Assembly: GCA_913031095.1 (NCBI GenBank)
Contig: CAJWGH010000095.1
Coordinates: forward strand, 1-5,217
Length of the DNA: 5,217 nt
From: an uncultured Chloroflexota bacterium
GTDB taxonomy: Bacteria > Chloroflexota > Dehalococcoidia > UBA3495
Direction of reading: 5' to 3'
The notes below the pieces were generated by a model, which saw only the letters and a program-made list of their open reading frames with translations, was not told where the DNA came from and did no database searches. The position numbers were made by a program, and so were the translations under genes. Shown piece after piece: positions 1,693 to 5,217 of the stretch. How positions within the stretch are numbered: the stretch's first letter is position 1; each line of letters starts with the position of its first letter.

Positions 1693-2484
1693 TCACTTAA
1701 GGCCTTGAGCGAAGTCGAGCCAGACCCTGGCGCAAGGTACCGGCAGTATGTGCTGTACGAATCCCTGTACACCTGGGAAAATCACTTTCGTACCATTGGG
1801 GAAAAGGTCTGACGCACTCCTGAAATCACCCAGGACTTCTTCTCGCAAGCTGGCAGCAGCTAGCATCAGCATGGGGGTCTGGACGTTCTTCAATGCGGGA
1901 CCGATATCTCCTCCTGCATTGGCCTGGAACCCGGCCACCACATGGGCCGGGGTCTTCTTCATCTGTTCCGCGTACCAACGGATGTAGGCCGGGTCTACTA
2001 TCTGAGGGTCCAATCTACGGCCGATTGAACTCTCGACCCACACGTTGATTCCTTCTCGTTCGATAAGGTCAGCGCTTTCTTTGTGGTGAGAGTCGAAGTT
2101 AGTCGGCGAGGTGCAGACGGCGAGTGACCTCAGTCGCTCTTGATTGCTTATAGAGAAGTTCATTGAAATTGAACCGCCCACGGTCTCGCCGATAAGGTGG
2201 AACTTGTCTAGCTCCATCTTGTCGACGAACTCTTTCAAGTCATTGGTGAAACTGTCTAGGGTCCAGGGATGTTCAGGGCCGGACACGTCTGAAAGGCCCA
2301 TTCCTCGCATGTCGAATCGGATGACACGGTAGTGTCGGGCGATGATGGGTACCCAGCCGAACCACATCTTATGGCTCTTGGCCATGCCGTGGTGCATGAC
2401 TACCGTCTCGGGTTCAGTCCAGGGGTCGGTGAAGTCGTCGATGCTGTAAAAAAGCTCTATCCCGTCGTCAAGACGAAGTTTCAT
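1693..2484 (-). CDS. Alpha/beta hydrolase-fold protein with Thr at the nucleophile position
   Basis: Complete 263-residue protein with the layout of a single-domain alpha/beta hydrolase. The oxyanion-loop motif HHGM is at residues 31-34, and FDMRGMGLSD at 57-66 matches the typical D-x-R-G-x-G-x-S after the fourth strand. The nucleophile elbow reads GETVGG at 99-104. A candidate catalytic His245 lies in VQHILPVP near the C-terminus. Two things are odd. The elbow has Thr101 (codon ACC, 2182-2184) where Ser, Asp or Cys is expected, and the stretch after strand seven (TPMLMLAAASLREEV, 203-217) lacks the usual Gly-x-x-Asp acid. Glu215 or Glu216 might substitute. It could be an esterase- or C-C-hydrolase-like enzyme with altered chemistry, or a non-hydrolytic relative; the substrate is unknown. 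The ATG start is supported by GGAG 7 bases upstream (2492-2495). It lies 198 bases downstream of the luciferase-like genes on the same strand and may be read with them. Confidence 0.9.
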   Translation of the reverse strand: MKLRLDDGIELFYSIDDFTDPWTEPETVVMHHGMAKSHKMWFGWVPIIARHYRVIRFDMRGMGLSDVSGPEHPWTLDSFTNDLKEFVDKMELDKFHLIGETVGGSISMNFSISNQERLRSLAVCTSPTNFDSHHKESADLIEREGINVWVESSIGRRLDPQIVDPAYIRWYAEQMKKTPAHVVAGFQANAGGDIGPALKNVQTPMLMLAAASLREEVLGDFRSASDLFPNGTKVIFPGVQGFVQHILPVPCARVWLDFAQGLK

Positions 2485-2543
2485 ATCGCTACTCCAGAAA
2501 TTTTTAGACGATTAGGTTCTGCTCCGTAAAGGTGAACCGGGCC

Positions 2544-2565
2544 ACTCTCAAGATGGTATGAGAGT
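2544..2565. repeat. Perfect 7-base inverted repeat upstream of the hydrolase gene
   Basis: ACTCTCA (2544-2550) and TGAGAGT (2559-2565) are exact reverse complements around an 8-base centre. The repeat sits 60-81 bases upstream of the hydrolase ATG. It has no T run on either side, so it is not an intrinsic terminator. On the minus strand the TTGAGA within it (2546-2551) matches the -35 consensus at 5 of 6, but the hexamer 17 bases on (TACGGA) is a poor -10 box. It could be an operator or a leader hairpin. Confidence 0.5.
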
Positions 2566-2682
2566 TGATGTATCCACCCCATAAGATCAAGTGGATTAAT
2601 ATCCCCATTTTATTGACCTTGCTTTGAAGAAGCCACCAAAGTCACTCGCGAGAGCAAGATAAGACTATTGCCGGCGGGCTGA

Positions 2683-3630
2683 TTAAGTTACGGCCATGAC
2701 CTCTTCTGAGAATCGGGCCATGCGGTCTTCAGTCTGGTTGGGGTCGGCTGTGCGGAAGTCAAAGATCAGGTGAGTGACTCCCACGTCTGCGTAGGTCTGC
2801 ACGTCTTGTCGCACCTCATCGGCTGAGCCGCTGAAACGGCGGCGGACGTCACCAGAAGAATTGGCATCATATAGAGGGGCTTTGACCGAGACTTGAATCT
2901 GAGAAGGGTCTCGTCCTGCTTTCTCTGCGTAGTCGTGGAGAAGGGCCAGGTTTTCTGCCAATTCCTCGGGTTCTAGCGGAGCGGCGGGAATGGCGCCGAC
3001 CGGATGCCAGGCGTCGCCGATCTGAGCGGCACGCCTGATAGCGGGTTTGCTCTGCCCACCGATCCAGATGGGCGGGTAGGGTTTTTGCACTGGCTTGGGC
3101 AAAAACGTGATGTTGGAGAAGTTGACATATTTGCCTTCGAATGTCGGGTCGTCGTTGGTCCACAGTTCTATAAAAGCACGCAGATATTCGTTGGTCACCG
3201 CTCCACGCTCAGCAAAGGGCTCGGCGTTCAATAGTTCGAATTCTTCCTCCATCCAGCCGACGCCTGCGCCTAAGATCAGGCGTCCCTTGGACAGCATATC
3301 CAGGGTTGAGAGCATCTTGGCGGTGAGTATGGGGTTGCGGTAGGGAATAATCATCACGCTGGTGACAAGCTTGATCTGCTCTGTGATTCCGGCCAGGTAG
3401 GCCAGGGTGGTGATCTGTTCCAGCCGCTCGTCTGAGGCTGTTGAATGGGCTTGTTGGATGTCACCAGTGATGCTGTAGGGGTATTGGGACTCTACAACGC
3501 GAGGCTGGACCACATGATCGGGCATGACCATACAGAAGAAACCTAGCTTATCTCCTTGCCGGGCGATTATTGCCAGATTATCGGGTTGGGCGGCCGGTCC
3601 GCCGCTTGGTAGGTAGAAGCCGTACTTCAT
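2683..3630 (-). CDS. LLM-class F420/flavin-dependent oxidoreductase, downstream copy
   Basis: Complete 315-residue luciferase-like TIM-barrel oxidoreductase, resembling the probable F420-dependent group in the Rv2161c style. Such enzymes usually transfer hydride from reduced F420, or use reduced flavin for monooxygenation; the exact cofactor cannot be read from sequence alone. Visible hallmarks are MKYGFYLP at the first strand, CMVMPDHV (33-40), the run from LAGITEQIKLVT (79-90) to PYRNP (96-100), GRLILGAGVGWMEEEF (116-131), KPYPPIWIGG (183-192) and GDAW (205-208). Residues 71-315 are identical to the adjacent upstream copy, while residues 1-70 match at only 41 positions. The stop is TAA, whereas the other copy uses TAG. 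The ATG start has AGGAG 6 bases upstream, and that site overlaps the stop of the preceding gene. The two genes form an operon, with this copy second. The substrate is unknown; a role in catabolism of an organic compound is inferred from the neighbours. Confidence 0.93.
   Translation of the reverse strand: MKYGFYLPSGGPAAQPDNLAIIARQGDKLGFFCMVMPDHVVQPRVVESQYPYSITGDIQQAHSTASDERLEQITTLAYLAGITEQIKLVTSVMIIPYRNPILTAKMLSTLDMLSKGRLILGAGVGWMEEEFELLNAEPFAERGAVTNEYLRAFIELWTNDDPTFEGKYVNFSNITFLPKPVQKPYPPIWIGGQSKPAIRRAAQIGDAWHPVGAIPAAPLEPEELAENLALLHDYAEKAGRDPSQIQVSVKAPLYDANSSGDVRRRFSGSADEVRQDVQTYADVGVTHLIFDFRTADPNQTEDRMARFSEEVMAVT
2684..3420 (-). repeat. 737-base direct repeat, copy 1 (in the downstream LLM gene)
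   Basis: Every base here matches 3641-4377 at an offset of 957; I compared the two line by line and saw no mismatch. The identity begins at the first base of codon 71 and ends at the second base of the stop codon. The flanking bases differ immediately on both sides. Synonymous positions are identical too, so selection on the protein cannot explain the match. Confidence 0.95.
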
Positions 3631-3636
3631 CGATAT

Positions 3637-3641
3637 CTCCT
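3637..3641 (-). promoter_or_regulatory. Shine-Dalgarno overlapping the upstream stop codon
   Basis: On the minus strand the end of the upstream LLM gene reads TAG GAG ATA TCG ATG. The AG of the TAG stop is part of the AGGAG ribosome site for the next gene, with a 6-base spacer to its ATG at 3630. A ribosome finishing the first gene stops on the start site of the second, which favours translational coupling. Confidence 0.75.
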
Positions 3642-4587
3642 AAGTTACGGCCATGACCTCTTCTGAGAATCGGGCCATGCGGTCTTCAGTCTGGTTGGGG
3701 TCGGCTGTGCGGAAGTCAAAGATCAGGTGAGTGACTCCCACGTCTGCGTAGGTCTGCACGTCTTGTCGCACCTCATCGGCTGAGCCGCTGAAACGGCGGC
3801 GGACGTCACCAGAAGAATTGGCATCATATAGAGGGGCTTTGACCGAGACTTGAATCTGAGAAGGGTCTCGTCCTGCTTTCTCTGCGTAGTCGTGGAGAAG
3901 GGCCAGGTTTTCTGCCAATTCCTCGGGTTCTAGCGGAGCGGCGGGAATGGCGCCGACCGGATGCCAGGCGTCGCCGATCTGAGCGGCACGCCTGATAGCG
4001 GGTTTGCTCTGCCCACCGATCCAGATGGGCGGGTAGGGTTTTTGCACTGGCTTGGGCAAAAACGTGATGTTGGAGAAGTTGACATATTTGCCTTCGAATG
4101 TCGGGTCGTCGTTGGTCCACAGTTCTATAAAAGCACGCAGATATTCGTTGGTCACCGCTCCACGCTCAGCAAAGGGCTCGGCGTTCAATAGTTCGAATTC
4201 TTCCTCCATCCAGCCGACGCCTGCGCCTAAGATCAGGCGTCCCTTGGACAGCATATCCAGGGTTGAGAGCATCTTGGCGGTGAGTATGGGGTTGCGGTAG
4301 GGAATAATCATCACGCTGGTGACAAGCTTGATCTGCTCTGTGATTCCGGCCAGGTAGGCCAGGGTGGTGATCTGTTCTGGCCATTCGCCGTCACCTGACT
4401 GACCGGCCTCCAGTATGTCGCCGGTTAAGCTGTATGGGTAGGTCGACTTGACCTGGTTGGGCTGCAGGACGTGATCGGGCATGACCATGCAGTAGAAACC
4501 TAGGCGGTCGCCCAGTTTTGCTATATCCGCCAGCGCGTCAGGCTCAACGCCGGCGCCGCTGTTGGGAAGATAGAAGCCATATTCCAT
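3640..4587 (-). CDS. LLM-class F420/flavin-dependent oxidoreductase, promoter-proximal copy
   Basis: Complete 315-residue paralogue of the gene that follows it, with the same luciferase-like family hallmarks: MEYGFYLP at the start, CMVMPDHV at 33-40, YPYS-TGDI at 50-58, GRLILGAGVGWMEEEF at 116-131, PPIWIGG at 186-192 and GDAW at 205-208. It is the first gene of the minus-strand operon. The ATG at 4585-4587 has AGGAG (4596-4600) 8 bases upstream. The first 70 residues differ from the second copy at 29 positions, for example NSGAGVEPDAL against SGGPAAQPDNL near residue 9, and GQSGDGEWP against HSTASDERL at 62-70. The rest is identical. In this fold the N-terminal strands and loops contribute to the cofactor and substrate pocket, so the copies may differ in substrate or partner (inference). 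Cofactor and substrate are not determined here. Confidence 0.93.
   Translation of the reverse strand: MEYGFYLPNSGAGVEPDALADIAKLGDRLGFYCMVMPDHVLQPNQVKSTYPYSLTGDILEAGQSGDGEWPEQITTLAYLAGITEQIKLVTSVMIIPYRNPILTAKMLSTLDMLSKGRLILGAGVGWMEEEFELLNAEPFAERGAVTNEYLRAFIELWTNDDPTFEGKYVNFSNITFLPKPVQKPYPPIWIGGQSKPAIRRAAQIGDAWHPVGAIPAAPLEPEELAENLALLHDYAEKAGRDPSQIQVSVKAPLYDANSSGDVRRRFSGSADEVRQDVQTYADVGVTHLIFDFRTADPNQTEDRMARFSEEVMAVT
3641..4377 (-). repeat. 737-base direct repeat, copy 2 (in the upstream LLM gene)
   Basis: Second copy of the identical block, in the same orientation as 2684-3420 with 220 unique bases between them. No terminal inverted repeats, target duplications or transposase accompany it, so it is a duplicated or converted gene segment and not a mobile element. 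Crossing-over between the copies would remove 957 bases and leave one intact gene with this copy's N-terminus. Confidence 0.95.
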
Positions 4588-4651: not shown

Positions 4652-4681
4652 ACGCCGGCCCGGATGGTTGGTTCCTCAGAC

Positions 4682-4709
4682 TATATATCCACGTGGCTGG
4701 CGTGTCCAA
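4682..4709 (-). promoter_or_regulatory. Candidate promoter of the LLM operon (minus strand)
   Basis: On the minus strand TTGGAC (4704-4709) is followed by 16 bases and TATATA (4682-4687). Shifting two bases gives TATAGT (4680-4685, 5 of 6 to the -10 consensus) with an 18-base spacer. The -35 match is weak (3 of 6). Transcription would start near 4675, about 90 bases before the ATG, and the leader would contain the dyad at 4628-4651. Confidence 0.4.
4689..4696. promoter_or_regulatory. Palindrome CCACGTGG inside the promoter spacer
   Basis: An 8-base perfect palindrome lies between the predicted -10 and -35 boxes of the LLM operon and 22 bases from the -35 box of the divergent MaoC promoter. 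It could be a half or core of a regulator site. Eight-base palindromes also arise by chance, so this is weak. Confidence 0.25.
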
Positions 4710-4717
4710 TGAAATAT

Positions 4718-4775: not shown

Positions 4776-5217
4776 GTGACTACGCCCGCGTCATTTTTGA
4801 CCGAAGAAATGCGGCAGCAGGCCATTGGCCAAAAGAGTGAGCCAAAGACCATCGACGTGGAGAAAGGCGCGATTATCAAGTTCGCCCAGGCCATCGAAGA
4901 TGACAATCCTGTTTTCAACGACGAGAAGGTTGCCCGAGAGAGTCGATATGGCGGGCTCATAGCTCCACCAACTTTCCTTCGCTCTGTAGGCGTAGACCGC
5001 CCGGCTTACCCATACGATATGCCATTCAATCGGTTGCTGGACGGCGGCAGCGATTGGGAATATTTCTATCCTGTGCGGGCCGGAGACCGAATTACGGCAG
5101 TCTCAGAGATTGCCGATATTAATGAGCGCACCGGCCGAATGGGCCTCATGATTATCACCACTATTGTGGTGACCTACCGGAACCAGTTCGAACAGGTTGC
5201 CGCTACTCAGACCAGCA
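4776..5217 (+). CDS. MaoC/FAS1-like dehydratase N-terminal domain protein (3' end outside window)
   Basis: The reading frame is open from GTG to the window end, giving 147 residues with no stop. The sequence matches the hot-dog-fold MaoC N-terminal type (FAS1-like dehydratase domain) found in enoyl-CoA hydratases and related dehydratases. IGQKSEP is at residues 17-23. The hydratase region FAQAIEDDNPVFNDE spans 36-50 and YGGLIAPPTF 58-67. GGSDWEYFYPVRAGDRITA lies at 90-108, and a final strand with IITTIVVTYRNQ at 126-137. In catalytic hydratase-2 proteins the D-x-N-P motif is followed two residues on by His. Here the motif reads DDNPVF, with Phe47 at that place. Lack of His is common in this N-terminal domain, which usually works with a catalytic MaoC half, either fused or encoded next door. 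That partner would lie beyond the window. The gene is divergent from the LLM operon across a 188-base control region and may serve the same pathway. Confidence 0.85.
   Translation, partial: MTTPASFLTEEMRQQAIGQKSEPKTIDVEKGAIIKFAQAIEDDNPVFNDEKVARESRYGGLIAPPTFLRSVGVDRPAYPYDMPFNRLLDGGSDWEYFYPVRAGDRITAVSEIADINERTGRMGLMIITTIVVTYRNQFEQVAATQTS

What the first reader, a model, noticed from the sequence alone, without database searches (positions are those of the whole stretch)
2684..4377. Tandem LLM oxidoreductases with an identical 737-base C-terminal block and diverged N-termini
Seen: 2684-3420 equals 3641-4377 base for base, including synonymous positions. Immediately before it, the first 70 codons encode proteins only 41/70 identical. 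The block starts exactly at codon 71 and ends inside the stop codon (TAA against TAG). Uniform divergence after a simple duplication cannot give this pattern. Inference: recent gene conversion between older paralogues, or a copy of one C-terminal part fused to another N-terminus, so that only the N-terminal module varies. That would be a natural way to change specificity while keeping the core barrel. A misassembly of two related genes could look the same.
Basis: partly seen in the sequence, partly recalled or inferred. Interest (0 to 1): 0.7.

Follow-up and report, generated by a model that had tools for sequence, protein, structure and literature searches.

The report
Twin enzyme genes sharing a rewritten core
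Two neighbouring enzyme genes in an ocean bacterium keep different front ends while the rest appears to have been copied from one to the other, and the same kind of copying shows up separately in related bacteria, so ordinary family trees of these genes can mislead.

Summary
The window is a whole 5,217-base contig whose nearest named relatives are SAR202/Dehalococcoidia MAGs. Genes A (3640-4587) and B (2683-3630) are tandem TIGR03619 luciferase-like (LLM) oxidoreductases. Six related contigs carry the same A-then-B tandem. Codons 1-70 differ in all seven (61-72% nt identity). The rest is identical in the window, identical from nt 245 in L001, nearly so over columns 244-575 in L003, and 70-82% identical in L002, L004 and L006. 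Trees conflict: codons 1-70 group by type; for the rest a single B clade is rejected (p-AU 6.6e-7) and L001 and L003 pair by genome. Best explanation: repeated gene conversion (or equivalent unequal recombination) between the twins, stopping at or just after the loop at residues 40-70. Known mechanism, informative case; loop function is inferred.

The parts
3640..4587 (-). LLM gene A (315 aa, ATG to TAG), upstream copy, A-type N-terminus
   Evidence: TIGR03619 240.4 bits against cut-off 166.9; PF00296 167.3 bits
2683..3630 (-). LLM gene B (315 aa, ATG to TAA), downstream copy, B-type N-terminus
   Evidence: TIGR03619 240.2 bits; PF00296 164.6 bits
3641..4377 (-). identical block in gene A: codons 71-315 and two bases of the stop codon
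2684..3420 (-). identical block in gene B: codons 71-315 and two bases of the stop codon
4378..4587 (-). A-type codons 1-70 (beta1-alpha1-beta2 and the following loop), not homogenised
3421..3630 (-). B-type codons 1-70, not homogenised
   Evidence: secondary structure taken over from the model of A
4378..4470 (-). A-type loop, codons 40-70, between beta2 and alpha2; proposed specificity segment
   Evidence: type-diagnostic positions; low-confidence stretch in the model; function inferred
3421..3513 (-). B-type loop, codons 40-70
   Evidence: position by alignment to A; function inferred
3631..3639 (-). 9-nt spacer between A stop and B start; the Shine-Dalgarno-like AGGAG overlaps the A stop codon. 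In L001-L006 the spacer is 23-56 nt
4681..4710 (-). promoter-like TTGGACA / TATATAG element upstream of A, present in 10 of 10 upstream regions aligned, including the B-only genome L011
   Evidence: resemblance only, no test of function
2507..2608 (-). remnant (residues 249-282) of a carboxymuconolactone-decarboxylase-family gene that is full-length in several relatives
   Evidence: Pfam PF02627 for the L003 copy
1693..2484 (-). alpha/beta hydrolase, syntenic downstream gene
4776..5216 (+). MaoC/FAS1_DH-type dehydratase (runs off the contig), syntenic divergent gene

Best explanation
A and B are an old tandem pair of F420-type LLM oxidoreductases at a conserved locus of SAR202-type Chloroflexota. 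They probably arose by duplication of a single A-like gene, after which the B N-terminus diverged. Homologous recombination between the direct repeats repeatedly overwrites one copy with the other from about codon 71-82 towards the stop codon, so the barrel core evolves in concert in several of the genomes. Codons 1-70 are spared, above all the loop at residues 40-70. They have diverged to 61-72% nt identity, too little for strand exchange (inferred), and chimeras inside the loop are probably selected against because it sets which substrate is accepted (inferred). In the window the last event is recent. Protein comparisons suggest B was the donor (weak). Shown: identity, tract endpoints, discordant trees, recurrence. 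Inferred: RecA-type conversion as the process, the reason for sparing, the role of the loop.
For: Exact 737-nt identity next to codons 1-70 with synonymous p-distance 0.76. The same tandem in L001-L006, beside a MaoC gene in all six and followed by the alpha/beta hydrolase in L002, L003, L004 and L006; the L001 and L005 loci end first. A against B, codons 71-315: window 735/735 nt; L001 724/735 (100% from nt 245 through the stop); L003 636/717 (three mismatches and one 18-nt gap over alignment columns 244-575, then divergent); L005 312/354 up to its contig end, with six mismatches over columns 373-564; L002 601/735, L004 573/735, L006 511/735. Window and L001 differ in the C part by about 20% whichever copies are compared (586, 583, 583 of 735), so their homogenisations are separate. 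Trees: B one clade in N (100/99.9); W and L001 pairs rejected in N (p-AU 5e-46, 9e-94); B clade rejected in C (p-AU 6.6e-7), where L001 and L003 pair by genome. Longest-run shuffles: W, L001, L003, L005 0 of 2000. 14 of 134 A-type proteins have a B-type protein within 1 of 245 C residues. Donor: the four A proteins with 0-3 N differences from W_A differ in C by 7-23; the six other B proteins with 0-3 N differences from W_B differ in C by 1-4.
Against: L002 and L004 show no unusual run (1100 and 406 of 2000 shuffles reach theirs); L006 has only a 32-nt one (1/2000), in its N part; on third positions alone L005 is weaker (21/2000). In the C tree L004_B and L006_B still pair by type (97/99) and most branches are unresolved. 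The nearest C neighbour is of the same type for 156 of 205 proteins (27 other type, 22 ties). So the process is incomplete and not active in every lineage. No read data: exact identity in the window and in L001 could have been sharpened by an assembler. Conversion and repeated unequal crossing-over leave similar traces. Loop function is inferred only.
Confidence: 0.82

Rival explanations
1. The identity in the window is an assembly artefact: two similar C-parts were collapsed into one, or a repeat loop was walked once more than exists.
For: The window is a whole metagenome contig, and a 737-nt exact repeat is longer than usual short reads (recalled). No reads are available.
Against: Order and neighbours agree with L002, L003, L004 and L006, on contigs of 27-144 kb, whose A and B C-parts differ. 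L001 is another assembly with another tract edge, and the L003 tract is internal with mismatches in it. Collapse alone would not make C follow genome in L003.
Confidence: 0.1
2. The C parts were homogenised by rounds of unequal crossing-over (three-gene arrays gained and lost), not by conversion.
For: Copy number varies at the locus: of 11 genomes of the A/B clade six carry both, four A only, one B only. In the B-only genome L011 the gene sits behind the promoter-like element normally found before A, as a deletion would leave it.
Against: No three-gene array was seen in the 11 genomes. The internal tract of L003, with divergent sequence on both sides, is easier by conversion. This rival changes the process, not the outcome.
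Confidence: 0.2
3. A C-terminal part was fused to the N-terminus of another LLM family, making one gene a chimera.
For: Identity is abrupt at codon 71; three related genomes hold 95-109 LLM matches each.
Against: The best matches of the B N-terminus among the loci searched are single-copy genes of the same family (L010, L009, L112), L009 and L010 at the same place. Among 52 LLM regions of G001, none of the printed alignments (30 largest of 43) other than A-B exceeds 73.8% nt identity. Not all LLM genes of any genome were compared.
Confidence: 0.03
4. A programmed system switches N-terminal specificity modules in front of a fixed core.
For: Four proteins combine the residue 1-36 type of one gene with the residue 40-70 type of the other (P0049, P0058, P0059, P0063).
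Against: Only two N types occur among the proteins compared, and each is conserved; none of the six proteins of the window that were scanned is a recombinase; the repeat finder listed only short imperfect inverted pairs (16-21 nt). The four mosaics have no DNA context and could be assembly chimeras.
Confidence: 0.03

Closest known systems
Gene conversion / concerted evolution between paralogues with a spared functional segment (recalled: opsins, MHC; bacterial conversion in tuf genes and pcaIJF/catIJF of Acinetobacter)
   Same: Identical tracts including synonymous sites, tree discordance, recurrence in several lineages, one segment kept apart.
   Different: Here it is a tandem enzyme pair in uncultured marine Chloroflexota, and the spared part is codons 1-70 including the loop at 40-70. 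No experiment shows why it is spared.
TIGR03619 F420-dependent LLM class oxidoreductases (PF00296)
   Same: Both proteins score above the curated cut-offs. The predicted fold matches LLM barrels: by Z F420-dependent Mer (31.7), tied with 3rao (31.4) and SfnG (31.1); by Foldseek E-value MsuD first.
   Different: Substrate and cofactor untested; long poorly predicted loop before alpha2.
SAR202 FMNO/LLM paralogue expansions (Landry 2017, PMC5395668; Saw 2020, PMC6946804)
   Same: Same bacterial group and enzyme superfamily; 95-109 PF00296 matches in each of three related genomes here.
   Different: In the main texts of both papers 'gene conversion', 'recombination' and 'tandem' occur 0 times (find passages; papers not read in full). 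Saw 2020 favours gene duplication within SAR202 as the source of the diversity (passage).
UGT1 and similar loci with variable first exons (PMC1885805, seen only as a search listing with the start of the abstract)
   Same: Variable N-terminal part with a common C-terminal part (the common part recalled).
   Different: Here each gene has its own C-terminal copy, kept alike by recombination rather than by splicing.

Membership tests
Gene conversion between paralogues | tract of identity covering synonymous sites, flanked by diverged paralogous sequence | tested here: met
Gene conversion between paralogues | discordant trees inside and outside the tract | tested here: met
Gene conversion between paralogues | non-reciprocal transfer with a known donor | tested here: inconclusive
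   protein comparison points to B as donor; P0044, whose N equals W_A, differs in C by only 7
Gene conversion between paralogues | tract confirmed by reads or in a closed genome | not testable with these tools
   no reads; no genome held for the window
Concerted evolution | paralogues within a genome more alike than orthologues between genomes | tested here: met
   C part: met for window, L001 and L003; not shown for L002, L004 and L006, and L004_B pairs with L006_B
TIGR03619 F420-dependent LLM | score above curated cut-off | tested here: met
   240.2 and 240.4 bits against 166.9
TIGR03619 F420-dependent LLM | use of F420 | not testable with these tools
   needs an assay
Programmed N-module switching | recombinase, invertible repeats or silent cassettes | tested here: inconclusive
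   none among the six proteins scanned and only short imperfect inverted pairs in the 5.2-kb window; the rest of the genome is not held

The most novel reading that the evidence does not exclude
Selection keeps residues 40-70 as an indivisible specificity cassette while recombination keeps refreshing the shared barrel and sometimes swaps the beta1-alpha1-beta2 piece (four mosaics). This would be a recombination-driven way to hold two substrate ranges on one core in SAR202 LLM enzymes, leaving a bias in trees of their large paralogue expansion.
Probability: 0.2. Interest if true: 0.62.

Novelty: new member of a known kind. Interest (0 to 1): 0.42.

Why it matters
The three related genomes examined hold 95-109 LLM matches each, and the history of this expansion has been read from protein trees (passages). 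Here is a pair in which about three quarters of the gene can follow another history than the rest. The comparison also narrows what separates the two enzymes without exception to about 30 residues, which makes the specificity question testable by loop swaps. It adds no new mechanism.

Tried and rejected
Fusion of a foreign N-terminus: disfavoured (B N-terminus closest to single-copy genes of the same family).

General mosaicism of LLM genes in one genome: 52 regions of G001 (some hold two genes; G001 has 103 matches, of which one search lists a part) were compared all against all. Apart from the A-B pair none of the 30 alignments printed (of 43) exceeds 73.8% nt identity. Three G004 regions with neighbouring LLM genes (L181, L182, L183) gave no self-match or only ones of 31-73 nt (up to six shown per region). 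The remaining matches were not examined.

IMG/VR viral contigs: 19 stretches matched a pattern, none encodes a relative. PLSDB plasmids: 1283 records match, all below 60% identity. Rfam: no match in the window at E up to 0.5, so no fluoride riboswitch was found before crcB.

Papers: 'gene conversion' with 'luciferase-like monooxygenase' 0 papers; with 'SAR202' 0; with 'F420-dependent' 3 listed, about methanogens or archaea by title and abstract start, not read; with 'catIJF' 0. One search (several terms) held 16, 12 listed, none read. The library holds open-licence PMC papers only.

Circularity to note: A and B types were assigned from residues 40-70, so the perfect split there is partly by construction; the weak type signal after residue 70 and the strong one in residues 1-36 are not. 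The protein set is the 189 distinct proteins among the best 120 listed of two searches, so it is centred on the window. Rows dropped: L005_B, L008_A, L009_A, L010 and L112_A from the protein set; L008_A from the codon alignment; L005 (both genes), L008, L010 and L112 from the trees; P0001 (equal to gene B) from the counts.

Full report
What is there. The window is a complete 5,217-base metagenome contig (the window's own protein is listed with that contig length). Its closest named relatives are SAR202 / Dehalococcoidia MAGs. It encodes an SDR (1-804, -), CrcB (1274-1651, +), an alpha/beta hydrolase (1693-2484, -), two LLM oxidoreductases B (2683-3630, -) and A (3640-4587, -), and a MaoC/FAS1_DH-type protein (4776-5216, +). 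The LLM genes read A then B on the minus strand, nine bases apart.

Observation. The identical run is exactly 737 nt (2684-3420 = 3641-4377). Codons 1-70 match at 41 of 70 residues. Synonymous p-distance is 0.76 in codons 1-70 and zero in codons 71-315. None of 2000 shuffles gives such a run.

The pair is old and shared. Six MAG contigs (L001-L006) carry the same tandem in the same order (L005's B is cut by the contig end). All lie beside the MaoC gene, and in L002, L003, L004 and L006 the alpha/beta hydrolase follows; the L001 and L005 loci end too early to show it. In a family search of 50 genomes, 43 had a match at E <= 1e-140, and 11 belong to the close A/B clade (E <= 1e-190). Of these 11, six have both genes, four have A only (in G008 it is interrupted by a stop at codon 68) and one has B only. 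The single-copy genes of L009, L010 and L112 match the A N-terminus at 74%, 60% and 69% and the B N-terminus at 54%, 64% (over 58 residues) and 53%; those of L009 and L010 stand between MaoC and hydrolase. So B is probably the derived copy; L010 is not decisive.

The C part is rewritten more than once. Nucleotide identity of A and B within a genome is 129-152 of 210 in codons 1-70 in all seven genomes. In the rest it is 735/735 (window), 724/735 (L001, no mismatch from nt 245 through the stop), 636/717 (L003, three mismatches and one 18-nt gap over alignment columns 244-575, then divergent), 312/354 up to the contig end (L005), 601/735 (L002), 573/735 (L004) and 511/735 (L006). The window and L001 differ from each other by about 20% in that part, whichever copies are compared, so their homogenisations are separate events. 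L002 and L004 show no significant run and L006 only a 32-nt one in its N part; L005 is significant on all sites (0/2000) but weaker on third positions (21/2000).

Trees. On DNA of 17 genes, codons 1-70 put all seven B genes in one clade (100/99.9) and reject the window pair and the L001 pair (p-AU 5e-46, 9e-94). Codons 71-315 join the L001 and L003 pairs by genome (100/100, 100/99), the window genes are identical, and a single B clade is rejected (p-AU 6.6e-7, the identical window pair left free). Against full concert, L004_B and L006_B pair by type in the C tree (97/99), and most other branches of both trees are open.

Where the types differ. Of 206 proteins (189 distinct ones among the best 120 listed of two searches, plus 17 window and genome copies) 134 have A-type and 72 B-type residues 40-70. 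Of 315 positions, eight have no residue shared between types: 41, 49, 62, 65, 66, 67, 69 and 70. Normalised mutual information with type reaches 1.0 in 40-70 and 0.86 in 1-36, but at most 0.28 after residue 70. Types were defined on 40-70, so that part is partly circular. Four proteins carry residues 1-36 of one type with 40-70 of the other. Fourteen of 134 A proteins have a B protein within one residue over the whole 245-residue C part, yet for 156 of 205 proteins the nearest C neighbour is of the same type (27 other, 22 ties). The sample is centred on the window.

Structure and role. The AlphaFold2 model of A (mean pLDDT 87.7) has beta2 at 33-37 and alpha2 from 72; between them residues 41-70 are poorly predicted (block means 68, 51, 59). 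The window's tract edge, codon 71, is thus the end of that stretch; in L001 and L003 the last mismatch before the tract is nt 244 and 243. The fold is an LLM barrel: F420-dependent Mer has the highest Z (31.7), tied with others above 30.7, and alkanesulfonate monooxygenase MsuD the lowest Foldseek E-value. D38 and H39 just before the loop are invariant over the 39 sequences of alignment A2; I recall that the matching Asp-His of FGD1 lies at the F420 active site. That the loop sets specificity is inference.

Mechanism. Shown: identical or near-identical tracts with different endpoints in several genomes, and discordant histories. Inferred: RecA-type conversion between repeats 957 bases apart, stopping where homology falls to 61-72%, with or without selection against loop chimeras. 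Unequal crossing-over is a close rival, because copy number varies at the locus and the B-only genome L011 has its gene behind the promoter-like element found before A elsewhere. The donor in the window was probably B: the four A proteins with 0-3 N differences differ in C by 7-23 residues, the six other B proteins with 0-3 N differences by 1-4.

Artefact. No reads or whole genome are available, so exactness in this contig is unverified. The arrangement agrees with larger contigs in which the two copies differ, and the L003 tract is internal with mismatches, so the pattern as a whole is not an assembly product.

Known and new. Conversion between paralogues with a spared segment is a known kind (recalled). 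In the two SAR202 papers on this enzyme expansion (find passages only) the words gene conversion, recombination and tandem occur 0 times, and no paper in the searched library joins 'gene conversion' with SAR202 or with luciferase-like monooxygenase. This is a new, replicated instance with a practical consequence: whole-gene trees of such genes mix two histories.

Noticed in passing
window 2507-2608 (-); L001 5984-6103; L004 5963-6372; L045 5982-6786; L010 6104-6896: A carboxymuconolactone-decarboxylase-family gene follows the LLM gene(s) and is nearly full-length in L002, L003, L007, L008, L009, L011 and L111. It is reduced to its last 34-40 residues in the window and in L001, the two genomes with the freshest C-part identity, shortened in L004, and matched in two frames in L045 and L010.
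   Followed up: partly
window 4681-4710 (-): A TTGGACA/TATATAG promoter-like element is present upstream of the first LLM gene in 10 of 10 loci aligned, including the B-only genome L011.
   Followed up: partly
L008 5001-5948: The A gene of this genome has an in-frame TAG at codon 68, at the edge of the loop; sequencing error or decay not distinguished.
   Followed up: no
L003 4031-4960: The A copy lacks six residues that B has, inside the otherwise homogenised stretch; may be a slip between short repeats.
   Followed up: no
L001 and L003, gene nt 243-245: Two genomes share almost the same left edge of the homogenised tract; common recombination site or shared ancestry was not resolved.
   Followed up: no
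G001, G002, G004: 103, 109 and 95 PF00296 matches per genome at E <= 1e-10, a large LLM paralogue set.
   Followed up: partly
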